Below, piece by piece: positions 28,161 to 62,822 of a DNA stretch of 64,000 nucleotides (the stretch's first letter is position 1; every line of letters starts with the position of its first letter). The stretch is from Corallococcus sp. AS-1-6 (GTDB taxonomy: Bacteria > Myxococcota > Myxococcia > Myxococcales > Myxococcaceae): positions 1 through 64,000 of the forward strand of contig NZ_JAIQDE010000004.1 of NCBI RefSeq assembly GCF_020037015.1, written 5' to 3'. The position numbers were made by a program, and so were the translations under genes. The notes under the pieces are model-generated. The model was not told the DNA's origin. It saw only the letters and a list, made by a program, of their open reading frames with translations, and searched no databases.

Positions 28161-29309
28161 ATGTCCTTGCGCCGTCCTCTGTCGTTCTTCGCCTCCCTGC
28201 TGATGCTGGGCGGCTGCGGTGCCGAAACCCTGGAGGAGGGCGCGGCGCCGCGTCAGTCCGCGGCCGCGCTGCACACGGGCATCGACCTGTCGGCGACCGG
28301 GCTGGGCGTGACGTGTGACGACGGCCAGGTGGCGACGGTGACGGGCGCCATCGTCAACGAGGCGCCGACGGGCATCGACCCGTCGGTGGCGGGCATCTAC
28401 GCGGGGGAGCCGGCCCAGGGCGGCACGCTGCTGGCGACGGTGAACGTGCCCTGGCTGGTGGGCAAGGAGCGCTATGCGTTCGAGGTCCCGGTGGTGCTGC
28501 CGGAGGGCACGCAGAAGCTGTTCGTGGTCGCGGACCACACGAACTTCTTCCCGGAGGACAGCGAGGAGAACAACACGGCGACGCTGACGCTGGCGGCTGG
28601 CGGCGGCTGTCTGGTGAACCAGCCGCCGGTGGCGCTCTGCAAGAACGTGACGGTGACGGCGAACGCGTCGTGCTCGGCGGCGGCGTCCATCGACAATGGC
28701 TCGTATGATCCGGATGGCTTCCCGCAGCCGCTGAGCGTCACGGCCAGCCCGGCGGGCCTGTACCCGGTGGGGACGACGCCGGTGACGCTCACGGTGTCGG
28801 ACGGGATGGACTCGGCCACGTGCTCGGCCACGGTGACGGTGGTGGACGCGACGGCGCCGGTGGCCGGGGCGAGCAAGGACCTGGTGCTGGCCCGCACGCT
28901 GGGCGCGGACTACAAGACGGTGACGCTGGCGGACTGCGCGCAGCCGGCGGCGGACACCTGCGGCGGGACGCTGGACCTGCAGCAGTCGGCCTCCATCGTG
29001 CGCGTGGAGTCGGACGAGTCCGAGGACGCGCTGTTCAGCCTGGCCCTCTTCAAGTGCCGGGACATCGTGCTGAGCGCGGACCGCAAGTCCGCGCAGTTGC
29101 GCGCGGAGTCCAGCCTGCTGGGCAACGGCCGCGTCTACACGATGGTGTACTCGGTGGCGGACGCGTCCGGTAACGCGACCCTCGGCACCTGCAAGGTGAA
29201 GGTGCCCAGCCTCCAGGGCGTCCTCTCCGTGGGGCTGGGCCCCGTGTACTGCCAGGGCACGGACTGCCCGGCGAACACGGGCGGCGGGCTGCTCTGCCCG
29301 CTGCTGTAG
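28161..29309 (+). CDS. Lipoprotein with CARDB- and HYR-like Ig folds
   Basis: 382 residues. The signal peptide ends in the lipobox MLGGC (Cys20). The first third (about 35-150) resembles a CARDB adhesion-type domain, with the ending NNTATLTL typical of it; a following part (about 155-235, with VSDGMDSATCSATVTVVD) resembles HYR repeats. The C-terminal 130 residues have paired cysteines and are not recognised. It would be an outer-membrane or surface lipoprotein. The ATG at 28161 follows GGAGAG. Confidence 0.75.
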   Translation: MSLRRPLSFFASLLMLGGCGAETLEEGAAPRQSAAALHTGIDLSATGLGVTCDDGQVATVTGAIVNEAPTGIDPSVAGIYAGEPAQGGTLLATVNVPWLVGKERYAFEVPVVLPEGTQKLFVVADHTNFFPEDSEENNTATLTLAAGGGCLVNQPPVALCKNVTVTANASCSAAASIDNGSYDPDGFPQPLSVTASPAGLYPVGTTPVTLTVSDGMDSATCSATVTVVDATAPVAGASKDLVLARTLGADYKTVTLADCAQPAADTCGGTLDLQQSASIVRVESDESEDALFSLALFKCRDIVLSADRKSAQLRAESSLLGNGRVYTMVYSVADASGNATLGTCKVKVPSLQGVLSVGLGPVYCQGTDCPANTGGGLLCPLL

Positions 29310-54269: not shown

Positions 54270-54405
54270 GGGCCGGGTTCGTCGCCTGATTCAGGCAGGG
54301 CGTCAAGCGGCGCGGCGCCATCGCCGCGTCCAACGCATGGCGCATGCATGGGTGTGGCACGGCACACACCCATGCCCTGCCTTCGTTACGAGCAGGCCGT
54401 CGCGG

Positions 54406-55170
54406 TCAGAAGCAGCGCGCCCGGCCGGACACGTCGACCTGGCCGGAGGCGCCGCCCAGGTACCAGTACCCGTTGCTCTGGAAGGTCCGGACGTACTCGC
54501 CGCCGCCCTCGAACTTGCCCCGCACGAACGTCAGGGCGCAGGAGCGGTTGAGCACGGGATCCAGCAGCTTCGCGGCGCCGCCCTGTCCCCAGCCGACCTC
54601 GTTCGTGTACGACGAGGAGGCGACGCAACGCGCCCGCACCCGCACGCCGCTCTGGCTGGAGTTGCCGTTCAGGTACCAGTAGCCGTTCTCGACATAGGCG
54701 TGGACCCACTCTCCGCTGCCGTGGAACTTGCCGGCGATGCCGGTGATGAAGCACACGCGGCCCGCCGCCGACCCCATGGAGACCGGGTACGCCATCGACT
54801 GGGTCCACTCGTATTGCTGGGAGGCGGTCGTGGCCACGCAGCGCGCCGCGCCCCGGATGCCGGACTGGCTGGAGGCCCCGCCGAGGTACCAGGAGCCGCC
54901 GCTCTCCGTGATGTCGATGCGCTCGCCGCCGCCCTCGAAGTCTCCGCCCACGCGGGTGAGGAAGCACGCCCGGCCCGAGCTGGCGCCCAGCGGCGTGAGG
55001 GACTGGCCCTGCGCCCAGGTGTACTCGTCGGTCGCGGCGATCTCCTCCTCCTGCGTGGCCAGCGCGGGCGCGGCGGGGACTTCCGCGTCCAGCGGCAGGT
55101 CCTCCGGACCGCAGCCCCAGAGCAGGGCGGGGAGCGACAGGGCGACCAGGGCGTGACGGAGCTTCGACAT
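54406..55170 (-). CDS. Lipoprotein with three ~70-residue repeats
   Basis: 254 residues. Lipobox LLWGC (Cys20). After a short acidic linker, three homologous repeats follow (about 45-115, 115-185 and 185-254). Each holds a Trp/Gln start (YTWAQGQ, YEWTQSM, VGWGQGG), a central CFLTRVGGDFEGGGE-like strand pair, WYLxGxSxQSG and a closing ARC(V/F). The cysteine pair per repeat suggests an internal disulfide. This looks like a small beta-fold repeated for ligand binding at the surface. I do not recognise the family by name. An AAGGA ribosome binding site precedes the ATG at 55170. Confidence 0.8.
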   Translation of the reverse strand: MSKLRHALVALSLPALLWGCGPEDLPLDAEVPAAPALATQEEEIAATDEYTWAQGQSLTPLGASSGRACFLTRVGGDFEGGGERIDITESGGSWYLGGASSQSGIRGAARCVATTASQQYEWTQSMAYPVSMGSAAGRVCFITGIAGKFHGSGEWVHAYVENGYWYLNGNSSQSGVRVRARCVASSSYTNEVGWGQGGAAKLLDPVLNRSCALTFVRGKFEGGGEYVRTFQSNGYWYLGGASGQVDVSGRARCF

Positions 55171-55394
55171 GATGGGGATGTCCTTGTGATGGGATGGATG
55201 GCGTGCGCCGCCCGCGGGCCGCGGTGCGCCGCAGCGCCATGCCCGTCCCTTGAGCAATGCGTGTGCCGGAAGGACTGGGAGGGCCGGCCCCTCGGAAGCG
55301 CTGCCTTCCGGGCGCGTGGATGGCACGGGGCCGGGTGTGCCACCGGCACGCGCGCGACGTGCCAGTGTGCCAGCGCGTTTGATAGGCTTTGACG

Positions 55395-58300
55395 ATGGCA
55401 TCCTCCGGCGGCGACGCACCCGCCAGTCCTCCGCCCAGCGAACCGACGGCGCCCGGACCCGCGCCGGTGGACCTGAGCACGCAGGAGGGGGAGCGCCCCG
55501 TCCCCGTGGAGGCCGCGCCCTCGCCCGGCCGGGAGCGCTACGTGCTGCTGTCGCTCCTGGGCCGGGGCGGCATGGGCGAGGTCCACCGGGCGCGCGACCT
55601 GCGCCTGGGCCGCGAGGTGGCGCTCAAGTTCCTGCGGGGCGCGTCCCCGGAGCGCTCCCTGCGGCTGCTCCAGGAGGCCCGCGCCCAGGCGCGCCTGGAC
55701 CACCCGAACATCTGCCGGGTGCACGAGGCCGGCGAGCTGAACGGCCGGCCCTACATCGCCATGCAACTGGTGGAGGGCGAGCCGCTGGACCGGGCCGCCG
55801 CCGCGCTCTCCCTGCCGGAGAAGGTCCGCGTGATGAAGGCCGCCGCGGAGGCCGTGCACGAGGCCCACCGGCTGGGCGTCATCCACCGCGACCTCAAGCC
55901 CTCCAACCTGCTGCTCACCCGGGACGCGGACGGCCGCCCCGTGCCCGTCATCGTGGACTTCGGGCTGGCGTACGACGCCGACCTGGGCCACGGCCTCACC
56001 GCCTCGGGCGACGTCATGGGCACGCCCGCGTACATGGCTCCGGAGCAGGCGCGGGGCGACGTGCGCGCCATCGACCGGCGCAGCGACGTCTACGGCCTGG
56101 GGGCCACGCTGTACGAGCTGCTCGCGGGGGTGCCTCCCTTTCGCGGCGCCACCCCGCTGGAGACGCTGCAGGGCGTGCTGCACGACGAGCCCCGTCCGCC
56201 GCGCGCGCTGGTGCCGCACCTGGACGCGGAGCTGGAGACGCTCTGCCTCAAGTGCCTGAGCAAGGACCCGGCGCTGCGCTACGCCTCCGCGCGCGCGCTG
56301 GCCGAGGACCTGGGACGCTACCTGGACGGCGAGCCCATCCTCGGGCGGCGCCCGGGGCCCGTCCACCGGGTGCGCCGGCTCGTGCGCAGGCACCGCGCGC
56401 TGGTGGCCGTGTCGGGCGTGTCGCTCGCGGGCATGCTGCTGCTCGCCGGACTCGCGGCGCGCTCGTGGCTGGCGGAGCGGGAACTCCAGTCAGTGAGCGC
56501 GGCGCGCGTCCAATTGGCGGAGCAACTGGGGCAGCAGGTGCGCGAGTCCGAGTGGTTCGTGCGCGCCTACCAGGCCCTGCCGCTTCACGACACCCGGCCC
56601 GAGCAGGCGCGGGTGCGCGAGCGGCTGGCGGCCATGGCCTCCCTCCAGCACGGCCTGGGCGCCCGGGGCGACGGGCTCGTGCAACTGGCGCTCGGACGCG
56701 GGCTGCTGGCGCTGCGCGAGTTCGAGGCCGCGCACCGCGCCCTGGAGCGCGCGCGAGCGCTGGGCGTCGACACGCCGGAGCTGCACTCCGCGCTGGGGCA
56801 GGTGCTGGGGGAGCGCTACCGCATGGCCCTGGAGGACGCGCGGCGCAGCGGCGGCGCGGCGTGGGTGGAGCACCGGCGAGCGGAGCTGGAGGCGCGCTTC
56901 CTTCAGCCCGCGCTGCGGTCCCTGGAGCAGGGAAGGGGACTGGCGCTGGAGTCGCCGAGCTACCTGGAGGGCCTCATCGCCTTGTATCGGCGGGACCTCG
57001 CTGGCGCGGAGCGGGCCGCGCGGGAGGCCGTGACGCGGACCCCGTGGCTCTCCGAGCCCCGGAAGCTGCTGGCGGACGTCACCGCCGCGCGGGCCCTGGC
57101 GCTGCTGGAGCGGGGCGACTACGCGGGGGCGCGGGCGGGCTTCGAGGCCGCGGCCGGACGCTATGGTGAGACCCTGGAGGTGGCGCGCAGCGACGCGGCG
57201 GCCCACGAGGCGCTCGCGGAGGTCTGGTTGCAGGTGTCGGAGCTGGACCGGCGGGAGGGCCGGTCCCGGCGCGTGGCGCTGGAGCGGGCCGAGGCCGCGG
57301 CGGACCAGGGCCTCCAGGCGGATCCGGACCGGGCCTCGGGGCACACCCGCAGGGCCCAGGTGCTGATGAACCAGTACCGGCGGGTGACGTTCCAGGGCGA
57401 GGCCGACCCCCGTGGCGCGCCGGCCCTGCTGGACGCGTGGCTGCGGGCCGCGGAGCGCGCCGTGGCGCTGGCGCCGGACGACGTGCTCGCGCATGACTCG
57501 CTGGGGTATGGCCACTTCATGCGGGGCCTGCGGCAGGCCCGGGCCGGCGAGTCGCCGGACGCGTCCTTCGCGCAGGCCGTCACGTGGTTGTCGCGCGCCA
57601 TCGCGAAGCAGCCGCGCTACCCCTGGGCGCTCAACGACCTGGGGCTCGTGCACCGCTGGCGCGGCAACCACCAGCGGGAGCGCGGGGGGGACCCCTCCGG
57701 GGCCTACGCGGAGGCGGAGCGGTGCTTCCAGCGGGCGGCGGAGGCGGACCCCTCCTATCTCTTCGCCCTCTCCAACCTGACGGAGCTGCACGCGGAGCAG
57801 GCCGCGTGGCGGCAATCGAGGGGGGAGGAGCCAGCGGCGGACGTCCAGCGGGCGAGGGACGCGGGCGCGAGGGCGCTCGCGCTGGACGCCCGCTTCGCCG
57901 CCGTGCTGCACCACCTGGCCGCGGCGGAGCTGGCGCAGGGACACTACCTCTTCGATACCGGAGCGGACGCGCGCCCTTCGATTTCGAGCGCGCTCCAGCA
58001 CGCGGCGCGCGCGCTGGAGCTCAACCCGGCGTCGGACCGCGCGCTGCTGCACCGGGCCCGCGCGCACGCCCTGGAGGCCCGCATCGCGCTGCGCGAGGGC
58101 GGCACCCCGGCGTCGGCGCTCGCCCGCTCCGCCCAATCGCTGGCGGAGGCCCTGCGGCGCTCGCCGGCCTGCGCGGACTGCCGCGTCCAGGGCGCGGAGC
58201 TGGCGCGCCTGGCGGCGGAGCACGCGCGGCGCCAGGGCCAGGACGCCGTGCCCCACCTGCGCCGGGCGCTCGACGAGGCACGGCGCGCGACGGAGGCCCA

Positions 58301-58619
58301 GCCCTACGCGGACGCGCACGTGGAGCGCGCGCGGGCGTGCGGACAGCTCGCGTGGGCGCTGGCCCCCCGCGCGGCGCGGGCGGTGGTGCGCGAGGGGCTC
58401 GAACAGGTGGACCAGGCGCTGCGGCTCGACCCGGCGCGAGCGGAGGCGCATGCCCTGCGGGGCGTGCTGCTGCTCGCGGGCGCGCGTGGACGGGAGGCGG
58501 CGGGAGCGCGGGACGAGGCCCGCGCCGCGCTCGCTCGCGCCGTCGAACAGGCCCCGCGGCTGCGCGAGGACTACGCCCCGTGGCTCCGCGACGCGGCGCT
58601 GGAGCCCGGCGGGTCATAG
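55395..58619 (+). CDS. Membrane Ser/Thr kinase with TPR-rich sensor half
   Basis: 1074 residues. A Pro/Ala linker (1-48) precedes the Hanks kinase (about 50-310) with GRGGMGEVH, EVALKFL, HRDLKPSN, VDFGLA and GTPAYMAPEQ all intact. One transmembrane helix (about 337-357, LAGMLLLAGLAA) separates it from about 700 residues of TPR-like helical repeats (ALERARALGVDTPELHSALG, WALNDLGLVHRW, ALRGVLLLAG) on the other side of the membrane. Such kinases sense cell-envelope conditions in myxobacteria. Substrate unknown; the FHA-bearing activator at 59930 is a candidate partner. A TTG start two codons earlier is possible. Confidence 0.9.
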   Translation: MASSGGDAPASPPPSEPTAPGPAPVDLSTQEGERPVPVEAAPSPGRERYVLLSLLGRGGMGEVHRARDLRLGREVALKFLRGASPERSLRLLQEARAQARLDHPNICRVHEAGELNGRPYIAMQLVEGEPLDRAAAALSLPEKVRVMKAAAEAVHEAHRLGVIHRDLKPSNLLLTRDADGRPVPVIVDFGLAYDADLGHGLTASGDVMGTPAYMAPEQARGDVRAIDRRSDVYGLGATLYELLAGVPPFRGATPLETLQGVLHDEPRPPRALVPHLDAELETLCLKCLSKDPALRYASARALAEDLGRYLDGEPILGRRPGPVHRVRRLVRRHRALVAVSGVSLAGMLLLAGLAARSWLAERELQSVSAARVQLAEQLGQQVRESEWFVRAYQALPLHDTRPEQARVRERLAAMASLQHGLGARGDGLVQLALGRGLLALREFEAAHRALERARALGVDTPELHSALGQVLGERYRMALEDARRSGGAAWVEHRRAELEARFLQPALRSLEQGRGLALESPSYLEGLIALYRRDLAGAERAAREAVTRTPWLSEPRKLLADVTAARALALLERGDYAGARAGFEAAAGRYGETLEVARSDAAAHEALAEVWLQVSELDRREGRSRRVALERAEAAADQGLQADPDRASGHTRRAQVLMNQYRRVTFQGEADPRGAPALLDAWLRAAERAVALAPDDVLAHDSLGYGHFMRGLRQARAGESPDASFAQAVTWLSRAIAKQPRYPWALNDLGLVHRWRGNHQRERGGDPSGAYAEAERCFQRAAEADPSYLFALSNLTELHAEQAAWRQSRGEEPAADVQRARDAGARALALDARFAAVLHHLAAAELAQGHYLFDTGADARPSISSALQHAARALELNPASDRALLHRARAHALEARIALREGGTPASALARSAQSLAEALRRSPACADCRVQGAELARLAAEHARRQGQDAVPHLRRALDEARRATEAQPYADAHVERARACGQLAWALAPRAARAVVREGLEQVDQALRLDPARAEAHALRGVLLLAGARGREAAGARDEARAALARAVEQAPRLREDYAPWLRDAALEPGGS

Positions 58620-58634
58620 CCTCCGCGGCGGGGC

Positions 58635-59741
58635 CTACTGTTTCAGGGGGTGGGGCACGCCCGTCGCCATCACGGCGGGCGCGCTCCACCCGCGCACGGC
58701 GCCACAGGGCGGCAACTGGAGGCCCGCGGGCAGCGGCAGGGCGGTCCTGCGGTTCTCGGGGTTGAGGCAGACGGCGCCCTGGGGACTCCAGAGCGCCTCC
58801 AGGTGCTCAAGCTCCTCCAGCCGGTCGCTGGAGCGCGTGCCGAAGCCGTGCGCGTCCCGCCGGAGGAAGTCCGTGCCGCTCACCGTGAACGTCCGCGCGT
58901 CTCCGAGCCCCACGAAGTACGCGGCGCGCTTGGCCTGGAGACACGCGCCATAGACGGCCGCCCGCTCCGGCGTGTCCATGCGCGACGCCGGGTCCCACGG
59001 CGGATAGCCCCAGTCCAGGCACGCGCCGATGGCGCCCGTCTCGCACGCGAGCGTGACCGCGCTGGCGTCCGGTTGGACCGCGGCGTTCAGGCCGTCCACG
59101 TGCCGTCCCGGCAGCAGCAGCGAGGCGACCCGCTGCTTCTCGGGCGCCGCGCATTGGGGCCGCCAGTCCGGCATCCCCACCTGGCGGTAGTGCACCTGGA
59201 AGCGGCTGGCGCCGAGCGGCGTCCACCTCATCTCATAGCTCGCGTTCCGGGGGTCTCCGTCCGCGGGGGTGACGGGCAGCGAGAAGGTGAAGGTCTGCTT
59301 CGCCAGCTCTGTTCCCCGGAGCTTCCGCACGTCGCCGTCCGGACCGGCCACCGCGAGGAAGAGGTCCGTGGGCGTGGCATGGATGCCGTGCAGGCGCGGC
59401 GCCGCGCCTGACGCTCCGGCCAGCTCGACCGGGACCTCGAGCACCGCGCGCCGACCCTCCCGGGAGCGGACCCTCATGCGCACGCCCTCGGGGGTGTTGA
59501 CGAAGCCCTCCGGACACAGGGGGGCCGTCCGCTCGAACACGAAGCAGTGGCTCTGCCCCTCCGCGATGTAGATGCCCAGGCCGTTCGGATCCGGATCGCA
59601 CTGGCCCGTGGGGCAACCGCTTGCGCCGGAGGGCTCCGGCTTCGCTTCGTTGGGGGGGACCCGCACGGGGGCGGTCAGCCGGCAGCCGCCGCTCCCCATC
59701 ATCAATGCCAGACAGCCGAACCACACGCGATGAAGCTTCAC
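58635..59741 (-). CDS. ADYC-like domain lipoprotein
   Basis: 368 residues, GTG start with GAGGAG 8 nt upstream. Lipobox SGGC (Cys20). The C-terminal half repeats the two blocks of the ADYC protein at 13005-14102: ACETGAIGACLDWGYPPW, then RAAYFVGLG where the ADYC motif itself is changed (A-A-Y-F, lacking the cysteine). The N-terminal half (about 25-200) is Cys-bearing and not recognised. It would be anchored in the outer or inner membrane. It is convergent with the kinase-TPR gene and divergent from the sigma-54 activator. Confidence 0.75.
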   Translation of the reverse strand: MKLHRVWFGCLALMMGSGGCRLTAPVRVPPNEAKPEPSGASGCPTGQCDPDPNGLGIYIAEGQSHCFVFERTAPLCPEGFVNTPEGVRMRVRSREGRRAVLEVPVELAGASGAAPRLHGIHATPTDLFLAVAGPDGDVRKLRGTELAKQTFTFSLPVTPADGDPRNASYEMRWTPLGASRFQVHYRQVGMPDWRPQCAAPEKQRVASLLLPGRHVDGLNAAVQPDASAVTLACETGAIGACLDWGYPPWDPASRMDTPERAAVYGACLQAKRAAYFVGLGDARTFTVSGTDFLRRDAHGFGTRSSDRLEELEHLEALWSPQGAVCLNPENRRTALPLPAGLQLPPCGAVRGWSAPAVMATGVPHPLKQ

Positions 59742-59929
59742 CCGATGTCTCCTCGAGAAGGGCTCCGGACCGGAGCCGTTCGCGGCTCCTTGTGCGAGCC
59801 CCATGCCAATATGGCCCACGAACGCCGGGCCCGGGCGCCGGGGCCTCCCAGGCCCTGGGGGCGCGGGCTGGCACGCGCGGTGGCACACGGGGCCTGTGCC
59901 TCCGGTGGGCCCGGCTATGCTGGCGCGGC

Positions 59930-61291
59930 ATGGAACACGACCCGTCGACCCTGCAACCGAGCGGCGCCCTCGCGCAGCGGGCCTCCGCGGACGACGCGCC
60001 GGTGCCGGGGCTGCTGCGCCTGACGTGCGCGGGGACGCCGATGGCGGTGGCGGTGCCCCTCCAGGGGACGATGACGCTCGGCCGCGCGAGCCCCGGGCTG
60101 GGCGCGCTCCAGGATCCGCGGATGTCGCGCAGCCACGCGCGGGTGCACCACGACGGGCGCCGGTTCTGGGTGACGGACCTGGGCAGCCAGAACGGGACCT
60201 CGGTGGACGGCGAGCCCCTACCGGCGAACGTGCCGCGCGAGGCCCAGCGGCTCATCCGGCTGGGAGACTCGCTCTTCATGCCCACCCCGGACGTGGGCCC
60301 CCTGGCGCGCCAGGGCGTGCGAGAGGTGGAGGGCTTCGTGCGCGGCCCCGCCTTCCAGCGGCTGCTGGAGGAGGTGGCGCGCTCCGCCCAGCACGGCTTC
60401 ACGCTGCACATCCACGGGGAGAGCGGCACCGGCAAGGAGCAGGTGGCCCGCACCTTCCACGACCGCGGCCCCCGGAGCCGGGGCCCCTTCGTGGCGGTCA
60501 ACTGCGCGGCCATCCCCGCCGCGCTCGCGGAGCGGCTGCTCTTCGGCGCCCGCCGCGGCGCCTTCTCCGGCGCCGACGACGCGGAGGGCTACCTGCAGGC
60601 CGCCGACGGAGGGACCCTGTTCCTCGACGAGGTGGCGGAGCTGGACATGGGCGTGCAGGCGAAGCTGCTGCGGGCGCTGGAGACGCGCGAGGTGCTCCCG
60701 CTGGGCGGCTCGAAGCCCCGGAAGGTCGACGTCCAGGTCTGCTCCGCGGGCAACCGCGACCTGCGCGCGCAGGTGGCCCAGGGGCGGCTGCGCGAGGACC
60801 TGTACTTCCGCATCGGCAGGCCGGAGGTCTCCCTGCCTCCGCTGCGGCGGCGTCCGGAGGAGCTCCCCTTCCTGGTGGCGCGCGCCGTGGCGGAGCTGGC
60901 GCCGGGCCTGCCGCCGCACGTCACGCTCTTCGAGGCCTGTCTGTCGCGGCCCTGGCCCGGCAACGTCCGCGAGCTGCGCGTCGAGGCGCGCGCGGCCGCG
61001 CAGCAGGCCCTGCTCCAGGGCGCCGACCGCGTCGAGGCCGCCCACCTCGCGCCCGGAGCGGGGACGGCGTTCGGCGCGGCCTCCGCGCCAATGGAGGCCC
61101 CGCCGGCGCTCCCCGACAGGCCCCCTTCCGCCCGCGCGCGTCCCCTGGATGAAGACGAGCGGGCCCGCGTCGAGCAGGCCTTGCGCCACCACAATGGCAA
61201 CGTGGCCGCGACCGCGCGCGCGCTCGGGATGCACCGCACGCAACTGCGGCGCCTGCTGGAGCGGTACGGCCTGGACCCGGGCCGGAGCTGA
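59930..61291 (+). CDS. FHA-domain sigma-54-dependent transcriptional activator
   Basis: 453 residues. FHA domain (about 30-110) with GRASPGLG, SRSHARV and SQNGTSVDG, which binds phospho-threonine. AAA+ domain (about 135-365) with Walker A GESGTGKEQ (about 163), the sigma-54 contact loop as GAFSGA (Thr to Ser change from GAFTGA, about 209), Walker B FLDEVAEL (about 231) and the R-finger region LREDLYFRIG. C-terminal Fis-type HTH (NVAATARALGMHRTQLRRLLER). It would activate sigma-54 promoters when a Ser/Thr kinase phosphorylates a partner or itself. Confidence 0.92.
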   Translation: MEHDPSTLQPSGALAQRASADDAPVPGLLRLTCAGTPMAVAVPLQGTMTLGRASPGLGALQDPRMSRSHARVHHDGRRFWVTDLGSQNGTSVDGEPLPANVPREAQRLIRLGDSLFMPTPDVGPLARQGVREVEGFVRGPAFQRLLEEVARSAQHGFTLHIHGESGTGKEQVARTFHDRGPRSRGPFVAVNCAAIPAALAERLLFGARRGAFSGADDAEGYLQAADGGTLFLDEVAELDMGVQAKLLRALETREVLPLGGSKPRKVDVQVCSAGNRDLRAQVAQGRLREDLYFRIGRPEVSLPPLRRRPEELPFLVARAVAELAPGLPPHVTLFEACLSRPWPGNVRELRVEARAAAQQALLQGADRVEAAHLAPGAGTAFGAASAPMEAPPALPDRPPSARARPLDEDERARVEQALRHHNGNVAATARALGMHRTQLRRLLERYGLDPGRS

Positions 61292-61295
61292 TGGC

Positions 61296-61326
61296 GAGGC
61301 CCAGGCGCACGCTGGCGCCGGGCCTC
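61296..61326. terminator. Intrinsic terminator between convergent genes
   Basis: Hairpin with arms GAGGCCC-A-GGCGC and GCGCC-GGGCCTC (one bulged A) and a 6-nt loop, between the sigma-54 activator gene and the small peptide gene. No T-run, but position and stem strength fit a bidirectional terminator. Confidence 0.6.
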
Positions 61327-61339
61327 ACCCCGGGCGAGC

Positions 61340-61549
61340 CTAGAAACAGGTGCAGGCGGCCTTGTAACACTTGCCCAGGCGGAAGCCCTTCGCGACACAG
61401 CTCGCGTTGCACTCCTCCGCGTAGCACTCCACCTGAGAGGCCTCCGCGGTCGCGGGCGTGGACAGCGCCAGCGTGGCGCCAAAGGAAACAAAGGCACCCG
61501 CGCCCATCGCGAACAGCACCCGGCCCGCCTTCTTCAACGACGTCATCAT
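61340..61549 (-). CDS. Secreted six-cysteine defensin-like peptide
   Basis: 69 residues. GGGAG precedes ATG 61549. Sec-type signal peptide about residues 1-36 (cleavage near TATAEA-S). The mature part of about 32 residues has six Cys at 42, 47, 51, 61, 66 and 68: C-x4-C-x3-C-x9-C-x4-C-x1-C. This is the cysteine-stabilised alpha-beta (CSalphabeta) framework of invertebrate and fungal defensins (CxxxC helix and CxC strand), with a short first loop. It has a positive patch (KGFRLGKCYK). Myxobacterial defensin-like peptides have been described before (Anaeromyxobacter AdDLP), and this fits that class. Activity (antimicrobial, protease inhibitor or signal) is unknown. Confidence 0.75.
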   Translation of the reverse strand: MMTSLKKAGRVLFAMGAGAFVSFGATLALSTPATAEASQVECYAEECNASCVAKGFRLGKCYKAACTCF

Positions 61550-61604
61550 GTGTGTGTCTCCCGGTGTGGATGTTTCGGTTTGAAGCATAGCTCAACCCGG
61601 GAAT

Positions 61605-62822
61605 TCAGGGGGTCCCCGGCGTGAGCTTCCACAGACGGCCGTTTGAATCGTCCGTCAGCAGATAGAGCGCGCCGTCGGGCCCCTGGACCACCTCGCGGAT
61701 CCGCGCCTTGCGCTCCGTGAGCAGGCGCTCCTCGCCGACCACGCGGTCGTCCTTCAAGACCAGCCGCACCAGCGCCTGGCTGGACAGGCCTCCGATGAAG
61801 AAGTTCCCCTTCCACTCCGGGAAGAGCGCCCCCGAGTAGATGGTGAGCCCCGAGGGCGAGATGACCGGATCCCAATAATAGACAGGCTGCTCCATGCCCG
61901 CGGCCTGCGTCGTCTTGTGGATGGGCTCGCCCGAGTACTCCTCGCCATAGCCAATCGTGGGCCAGCCGTAGTCCTTGCCGGCCTCCGGGCGGTTGAGCTC
62001 GTCGCCTCCGCGTGGCCCCATCTCCACGATCCACAGCCGGTTCCGGGCATCCAGGGCCGCGGAGAGGATGTTGCGGTGTCCGGAGGACCAGATCTCGGGC
62101 CGGGCGTCCTTCCTGCCCACGAAGGGGTTGTCCTGGGGGATGGCGCCATCCGGGAGGATGCGGACCACCTTCCCGAAGTCGCTCTTGAGGTCCTGCGCCT
62201 GGACGCGGCCGGGGAGGATGGAGCGCTCACCGAGCGTGACGAAGAGCTTGCCGTCCGGCGTGAAGACGAGCCGCCCGCCCGCGTGCATCGTGGACTCGAG
62301 CGTGGGCTGCATGCGGAAGATGACCTGGAGCCCCTCGATGCGCGGCTTCGGGCCGTCCACCAGCTTCGCGCGCGCAACCGCGAGCCCGTTGCCGCCCTCG
62401 CGCGGCTCGTAATAGGTCCAGTAGATGAGGCCGCTCTTCGCGTAGTCGGGCCCCACCTCCACGTCGAGCAGCCCGCCCTGTCCCCGGCCGTCCACCTTGG
62501 GGAGGCCCGCCACCGGGGGCGACTTCTTGCCCGCGGCGGTGACGATGTAGAGCGAGCCCGTGGGCTTCTCCGTGACGAGGAAGCGGCCATCCGGCAGGAA
62601 CGCGAGGGCCCACGGCTTGTTGAAGCCCGAGGCGAGCTCCGTCACCACGATGGGCGTGCGCGTCTTCACCGCCGGGGCGCGCGTCTGCTGCGGGAACGCG
62701 GGCTTGAACTCCGGGACGTTGGGGGGCGCGGTCTCCAGCGGCCGGGGCGTCTGGGCCGCCGCTTCAGGGGCGGCGCCGAGCAGGAGGGAGGCGATGAGCG
62801 AGGTCACGAGTCCATGGCGCAT
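61605..62822 (-). CDS. PQQ-dependent aldose sugar dehydrogenase-like protein
   Basis: 405 residues. Signal peptide (about 1-23, ending AAA). It is a six-bladed beta-propeller of the soluble glucose dehydrogenase/Asd family. [20 protein letters not shown] is the start of the family, [21 protein letters not shown] the central block, SSGHRN the PQQ-binding region, and [17 protein letters not shown] a late signature. The catalytic His equivalent is likely in MHAGGR. It would oxidise aldoses in the periplasm with PQQ as cofactor and Ca2+ as a ligand. GGD(E)LN is characteristic of Asd-type enzymes. Confidence 0.9.

What the first reader, a model, noticed from the sequence alone, without database searches (positions are those of the whole stretch)
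61340..61549. Candidate myxobacterial CSalphabeta defensin-like peptide
Six cysteines in C-x4-C-x3-C-x9-C-x4-C-x1-C after a clear signal peptide, the framework of animal and fungal defensins. Known: a defensin-like peptide from Anaeromyxobacter has been used to argue for a myxobacterial origin of eukaryotic defensins. A short first loop and a distinct mature sequence would make this a separate member. It was easy to overlook, at 69 codons.
Basis: partly seen in the sequence, partly recalled or inferred. Interest (0 to 1): 0.8.

Follow-up and report, generated by a model that had tools for sequence, protein, structure and literature searches.

The report
Corallococcus six-cysteine defensin-like peptide gene
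This bacterial gene encodes a small secreted peptide, predicted to be held together by three disulfide bonds, that has the fold of insect defensins and short scorpion toxins; it is real and conserved, but it belongs to a family of myxobacterial defensins described in 2024 whose function is still unknown.

Summary
The ORF is real. It lies on the minus strand at 61549-61340: 69 codons, C-x4-C-x3-C-x9-C-x4-C-x-C (fourth Cys in a G-x-C motif) behind a signal peptide. Dinucleotide-model sequence gave no copy of this exact framework in 300 simulated windows. Seven Corallococcus species keep the 32-codon mature region with no amino-acid change despite synonymous divergence of about 0.17. AlphaFold2 folds the mature part as helix-strand-strand (block pLDDT 80-88). 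The best structural matches are BmBKTx1, scorpion Defensin-1 and nasonin, all CS-alpha-beta peptides with the same loop lengths as printed. Two orthologs pass Pfam's gathering score for Toxin_2.

The interpretation as a CS-alpha-beta defensin-like peptide therefore holds, but it is not a new kind. Cardoso et al. 2024 (PMC11561630) already describe class I bacterial defensins, mostly from Corallococcus. An identical precursor occurs in two other Corallococcus genomes.

New here: class I and class II-like peptides share one conserved leader (63% identity, against 28% at non-Cys mature positions), so they are one Myxococcaceae family. The window's clade is its only cationic branch. No partner gene travels with it.

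Function is unproven. Best guess: a secreted antagonistic effector. It lacks the lipid II-binding signature of actifensin and plectasin.

The parts
61340..61549 (-). CDS of the defensin-like precursor, 69 aa plus TAG stop
   Evidence: conserved in 12 Corallococcus genomes
61466..61549 (-). Conserved leader, residues 1-28: Sec-type signal peptide ending in a conserved T-x-A
   Evidence: 63% mean pairwise identity over 23 residues across 40 family members; signal peptidase site inferred, not tested
61427..61465 (-). Residues 29-41, linker; alternative signal peptidase sites ATA and AEA lie here, so the mature N-terminus is uncertain
   Evidence: sequence; A35 and A37 invariant in class I
61343..61426 (-). 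Six-cysteine CS-alpha-beta core, residues 42-69 (helix 44-53, strands 59-62 and 65-68)
   Evidence: AlphaFold2; PDB matches
61558..61562 (-). Putative ribosome-binding site GGGAG
   Evidence: sequence; GGGAG conserved in the 7 close orthologs
61584..61589 (-). TATGCT, possible -10 box: TATGCT in G000, G010, G003, G001, G008, one-base variants in G006 and G011; also TATGCT in two more distant orthologs. Inferred only
   Evidence: upstream alignment; the sigma-70 scan found no full consensus promoter
61293..61329 (.). GC-rich hairpin between the convergent stop codons, likely terminator; a similar inverted repeat follows several orthologs
   Evidence: fold -34.8 kcal/mol, z -2.24; downstream alignment

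Best explanation
The gene encodes a class I bacterial cis-defensin (corallosin type). Proposed pathway: the precursor is exported by Sec (inferred from the leader), signal peptidase cuts at T-x-A (after residue 28) or at the later A-x-A sites (after 35 or 37), periplasmic Dsb enzymes form three disulfides (inferred; pairing C1-C4, C2-C5, C3-C6 by homology), and the compact 28-residue core is released from the cell. Outside it most likely acts as an antagonistic effector of this predatory soil bacterium on prey or competitors by binding a cell-surface target through its basic face (R57, K60, K63), rather than by plectasin-type lipid II capture. Shown here: the gene, its framework, homology, predicted fold, strong purifying selection, and absence of a linked transporter or immunity gene. 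Inferred: secretion route, disulfides, release, target and antagonistic role. Confidence in identity as a CS-alpha-beta peptide of the published class I group is about 0.95; confidence in the antagonistic role is about 0.5. The figure below is for the whole statement.
For: Framework and signal peptide. PDB phmmer: scorpion Defensin-1 1.9e-4, BmBKTx1 3.5e-4, nasonin-1M 2.5e-3; family profile to BmBKTx1 6.5e-6. AlphaFold2 gives helix 44-53 and strands 59-62, 65-68. Foldseek to 3e8y: TM 0.88 normalised by target, rmsd 0.6 over 28 columns; VIA-align Z 3.7 to 1r1g, rmsd 1.1, 30 aligned. Two orthologs exceed the Pfam Toxin_2 gathering score, 26.9 and 26.2 against 25.1. 16 of 16 Corallococcus genomes carry at least one family member. 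Mature region: no amino-acid change in 7 species. This clade is the only cationic one, +2 to +3 from C1 to the end, in a family otherwise 0 to -5 apart from one run-on copy. Published class I is mostly Corallococcus with a KCXN motif in four members, and three orthologs here have KCVN.
Against: The only myxobacterial relative reported as tested in the papers read, xanthusin-1 of class II, had no antimicrobial activity according to its authors; a later paper states the opposite. The near-absolute conservation of the mature peptide in one clade is unlike the positive selection seen in actinomyces defensins. No immunity or export gene is linked. Net charge of the whole secreted form after T-x-A is about 0. 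The window peptide itself stays below the cut-offs of the Pfam and NCBIfam models it matches.
Confidence: 0.5

Rival explanations
1. It is a secreted peptide with a role inside the producer population (periplasmic, envelope or developmental function, or cell-cell signal), and the defensin fold is only a stable scaffold.
For: Mature sequence frozen across 7 species; stand-alone gene with no partner; most paralogs are acidic rather than cationic; class II xanthusin-1 inactive against microbes and expressed without induction by a competitor.
Against: Paralogs diversify strongly outside the cysteines (28% identity) and vary from 1 to 5 copies per genome, which fits effectors facing changing targets; class I is missing from 4 of 16 Corallococcus genomes.
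Confidence: 0.28
2. It works like a short alpha-KTx peptide: K60 and the terminal F69 form a Lys-aromatic dyad that plugs potassium channels of prey bacteria or of protist, fungal or nematode grazers.
For: Best structural and sequence neighbours include potassium-channel peptides with the same loop lengths; two orthologs pass the Pfam Toxin_2 gathering score; KCXN motif noted in class I by its discoverers; G-K-C and a C-terminal Phe are kept in all 12 orthologs. That a Lys plus an aromatic is the functional dyad of such peptides is my own knowledge.
Against: Sequence and fold likeness does not give function; scorpion Defensin-1, equally similar, is not named as a channel toxin. The likeness of non-Cys positions to it, keeping glycines, is only p about 0.001 before correcting for choosing the best PDB hits. 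The window copy lacks the N of KCXN.
Confidence: 0.12
3. It is an antibacterial lipid II binder like actifensin, actinomycesin and plectasin.
For: Same superfamily; NCBIfam actinodefensin is the top weak family match, E 0.0043 over residues 22-69; 11 of 21 family members match it weakly.
Against: Far below the actinodefensin cut-off (17.6 against 65 bits). It lacks the N-terminal GXGCP motif and the helix histidine before Cys3 (it has Ser50) that mark the lipid II-binding group.
Confidence: 0.08
4. It is a chance open reading frame, not a gene.
For: Small ORF in high-GC DNA where spurious ORFs are many.
Against: It lies between, not across, the flanking genes; omega 0.07; family of 40 distinct members with conserved cysteines.
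Confidence: 0.01

Closest known systems
Class I bacterial cis-defensins (corallosins), Cardoso et al. 2024, PMC11561630
   Same: Genus Corallococcus, short n loop, G-x-C gamma-core, three predicted disulfides, signal peptide, KCXN motif in some members as in three orthologs here
   Different: No difference found; the exact published sequences (Table S2) could not be read here, so identity with a named corallosin is likely but not proven
Class II myxobacterial defensins, xanthusin-1 (NMR)
   Same: Six-cysteine CS-alpha-beta scaffold; class II-like peptides in these genomes share the same conserved leader as the window peptide
   Different: Class II is defined by a 9-13 residue N-terminal tail; the class II-like peptides found here are mostly acidic with C-x2-C, C-x3-C or C-x7-C first loops. 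The window clade is cationic with C-x4-C
Actifensin / actinomycesin (actinodefensins, NF038042)
   Same: Bacterial CS-alpha-beta peptide with short n loop
   Different: Those sit in multi-gene clusters beside ABC transporters, use a non-classical leader, carry GXGCP and a helix His, and evolve under positive selection; none of this is seen here
BmBKTx1 (alpha-KTx 19.1), scorpion Defensin-1 (6bi5), nasonin-1
   Same: Same loop lengths C-x4-C-x3-C-x9-C-x4-C-x-C; 43-46% identity to BmBKTx1 and 6bi5 and 33% to nasonin-1 over 27-28 residues; superposable fold
   Different: Arthropod peptides; common descent as against shared fold constraints cannot be settled from about 28 residues
AdDLP of Anaeromyxobacter
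   Same: Myxobacterial defensin-like peptide
   Different: AdDLP has four cysteines (CSH motif only) and lacks the GXC gamma-core (PMC5116183)

Membership tests
CS-alpha-beta (cis-defensin) superfamily | Six-cysteine array with C-x3-C and C-x-C and a G-x-C gamma-core | tested here: met
CS-alpha-beta (cis-defensin) superfamily | Alpha-helix packed on a two-stranded sheet | tested here: met
   AlphaFold2 models and matches to solved CS-alpha-beta structures; prediction only
CS-alpha-beta (cis-defensin) superfamily | Disulfides C1-C4, C2-C5, C3-C6 | not testable with these tools
   Implied by superposition at 0.6-1.1 A on solved relatives; no bond was measured and no model coordinates were available
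Class I bacterial defensin (Cardoso 2024) | Short n loop | tested here: met
   C1-x4-C2; class definition
Class I bacterial defensin (Cardoso 2024) | N-terminal tail of 1-4 residues before Cys1 | tested here: inconclusive
   Tail is 4 if cut at AEA, 6 at ATA, 13 at the family-wide T-x-A
Class I bacterial defensin (Cardoso 2024) | Mainly from Corallococcus | tested here: met
   Named orthologs in C. exercitus, interemptor, terminator, sicarius, praedator
Actinodefensin NF038042 | NCBIfam cut-off 65 bits | tested here: not met
   17.6 bits
Actinodefensin / plectasin lipid II binders | GXGCP N-terminus and helix His before Cys3 | tested here: not met
   Sequence has ...SQVECY and Ser50 before Cys51; signature described
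Pfam Toxin_2 (PF00451) | Gathering score 25.1 bits | tested here: not met
   Window peptide 17.5 bits; but two orthologs reach 26.9 and 26.2
Potassium-channel blocker (works like) | Block of a potassium channel | not testable with these tools
   Needs electrophysiology
Antimicrobial defensin | Growth inhibition of microbes | not testable with these tools
   Needs assay; class II relative reported inactive

The most novel reading that the evidence does not exclude
The window peptide is one branch of a bacterial peptide arsenal built like venom peptide families: one strongly conserved leader, a fixed disulfide core, and a diversified surface. Its cationic Corallococcus branch is functionally a short alpha-KTx-type channel blocker or another eukaryote-directed effector, which would give myxobacteria a channel-directed peptide weapon and make the bacterial origin of defensin and KTx scaffolds testable.
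Probability: 0.12. Interest if true: 0.75.

Novelty: new member of a known kind. Interest (0 to 1): 0.36.

Why it matters
Bacterial defensins are few and their function outside Actinomyces is unknown, so a widely held, strongly conserved, cationic member in a predatory myxobacterium is a good test case. The shared leader shows that class I and class II-like peptides belong to one precursor family, which bears on the published suggestion that class II is a separate group. Finding the role of the window peptide would help decide whether the defensin scaffold began as a weapon in bacteria.

Tried and rejected
Plasmid, phage and viral-contig searches gave no relative, so there is no sign of mobile-element carriage. 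Apparent loss of flanking genes in some species first suggested mobility, but DNA comparison shows orthologous loci with local gene turnover in the close species. Two other weak hits in the own genome, including window 28805-28903, look like chance matches to leader-like sequence. Neighbour clustering in 32 loci found no gene family other than the peptide itself in more than 5 of 16 locus groups; what recurs are generic kinases and regulators (the gene caller was crude). Rfam found nothing at the locus. No full sigma-70 consensus promoter was found. The 21-row alignment could not seed a genome-contig scan, so class I alone was used. I could not read the supplementary tables of PMC11561630 to match the exact sequence, nor identify xanthusin-1 among the loci.

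Full report
Observation. The reported ORF exists at 61340-61549 on the minus strand, 69 codons, with the stated cysteine spacing. It lies between two genes and does not overlap them: a convergent FHA-sigma54 activator ending at 61291 and a glucose/sorbosone dehydrogenase-like gene (GSDH) at 61605-62822. A GC-rich hairpin of about 15 pairs fills the gap between the convergent stop codons. The exact cysteine framework did not occur in 300 Markov versions of the window; a looser pattern occurred twice.

Is it a gene. Seven Corallococcus genomes carry near-identical copies; two besides the window's own have an identical 69-residue precursor. Over the last 32 codons there is no non-synonymous difference in any pair, with pS 0.171; the leader has omega 0.18. 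By my count from the printed sequences there are about ten synonymous changes in those codons. Five more distant orthologs keep every cysteine and the C-terminal ACTCF. The genus is Corallococcus: contigs of the same lengths as those of G003, G008, G012, G005 and G009 are titled C. exercitus, interemptor, terminator, sicarius and praedator.

What it is. The mature peptide matches solved CS-alpha-beta peptides by sequence: scorpion Defensin-1 1.9e-4, BmBKTx1 3.5e-4, nasonin-1M 2.5e-3. Their loop lengths in the printed alignments are the same as here. The family profile reaches BmBKTx1 at 6.5e-6. Single-sequence AlphaFold2 gives a helix at 44-53 and strands at 59-62 and 65-68, and a seven-sequence alignment gives the same; overall confidence is modest because the leader is poorly predicted, but the core blocks are at pLDDT 80-88. 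Foldseek to 3e8y gives TM 0.88 normalised by the target and rmsd 0.6 over 28 columns, though its E-value is poor, as expected for so short a chain. VIA-align gives Z 3.7, rmsd 1.1, 30 residues to 1r1g; by its own notes Z values this low are not strong on their own. The window peptide is under the curated cut-offs of the Pfam and NCBIfam models it matches, but two orthologs pass Toxin_2.

Family context. All 16 Corallococcus genomes searched have at least one relative, and the family reaches four further genera of the same GTDB family; beyond the family there was only one marginal hit in the order, and the phylum search found nothing outside the family at E 1e-4. Forty unique full-length precursors share a leader KKxGxxLLAxxxGxxxSFGxTxA at 63% mean pairwise identity, while mature positions other than cysteine are only 28% identical. 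The C-x3-C and C-x9-C spacing is nearly fixed and the first loop varies from 2 to 7 residues. The tree puts the C-x4-C peptides (12, all Corallococcus) apart from the rest with 99/100 support, with the usual caution for 70 columns. Within that clade the ten SQVEC peptides including the window's are cationic (+2 to +3 from Cys1 on); all other paralogs are neutral to strongly acidic, apart from one run-on copy. Decayed copies exist: one lost Cys1 (L020), one keeps only the leader (L070), and one runs on at the C-terminus (L028).

Locus. In the seven close species DNA comparison shows an orthologous position with turnover of flanking genes: conserved sequence common to all pairs extends about 45 bases on either side of the ORF. 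No transporter, protease or immunity gene recurs beside family members, unlike actinomyces defensin clusters between ABC transporters.

Literature. Cardoso et al. 2024 (PMC11561630) define five classes of bacterial cis-defensins. Class I has 20 sequences, 15 from Corallococcus, and a KCXN motif in four. Class II includes xanthusin-1 with an NMR structure and no antimicrobial activity in their tests. A 2025 paper (PMC12284004) cites xanthusin-1 as antimicrobial, which contradicts the source. The same paper gives the signature of the lipid II-binding group (GXGCP and helix His) that the window peptide lacks. So the finding is correct in kind but not new in kind; the KCVN motif of three orthologs here suggests the published class I is this very ortholog group. 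From my own memory, not a tool, the length of G010 (10,080,619 bp) is that of the C. coralloides DSM 2259 chromosome; its copy is identical to the window's.

Mechanism. Shown: gene, framework, conserved leader, predicted fold, purifying selection. Inferred: Sec export, Dsb oxidation, cleavage at T-x-A or A-x-A, release, and action on other cells. A lipid II mode is unlikely from the missing signature. A KTx-like mode is possible: Lys60 in G-K-C and the terminal Phe69 are kept in all 12 orthologs, but fold likeness does not prove it, and the non-cysteine similarity to scorpion Defensin-1 with glycines kept fixed is only p 0.0007 before allowing for selection of the best hit. The frozen sequence and the inactive class II relative keep a self-directed role open.

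Verdict. A real, conserved, secreted defensin-like peptide of the published class I, function unknown, most likely an antagonistic effector.

Noticed in passing
window 54308-61295: A segment of about 7 kb with a Ser/Thr kinase-TPR protein (55389-58619 +), an ADYC-domain protein (58635-59888 -) and an FHA-sigma54 activator (about 59960-61291 +) has no long DNA match in the orthologous loci of six other Corallococcus genomes, so it looks like a strain-specific island. Its PADLOC hits reflect the kinase domain.
   Followed up: partly
L064 (G030:C19:1278-1448, minus) and L065 (G098:C2:7064146-7064316, plus): Genomes of another genus (g16) carry a six-cysteine G-x-C peptide with an unrelated leader (MRQIIVGAALALGLGVGFTAGIPSAEA...), so CS-alpha-beta-like cores occur behind at least two leader types.
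   Followed up: no
L070 (G118:C67:482636-482737), L020, L028, L066: Decayed family copies: leader without core, a copy that lost Cys1, and copies with a C-terminal run-on.
   Followed up: partly
literature, PMC12284004 against PMC11561630: The later paper cites xanthusin-1 as antimicrobial; the original reports no activity.
   Followed up: yes
L078/L093 (G001:C3) and L079/L094 (G011:C16): Two diverged family members lie 4 to 7 kb apart on the same contig in two Corallococcus genomes.
   Followed up: no
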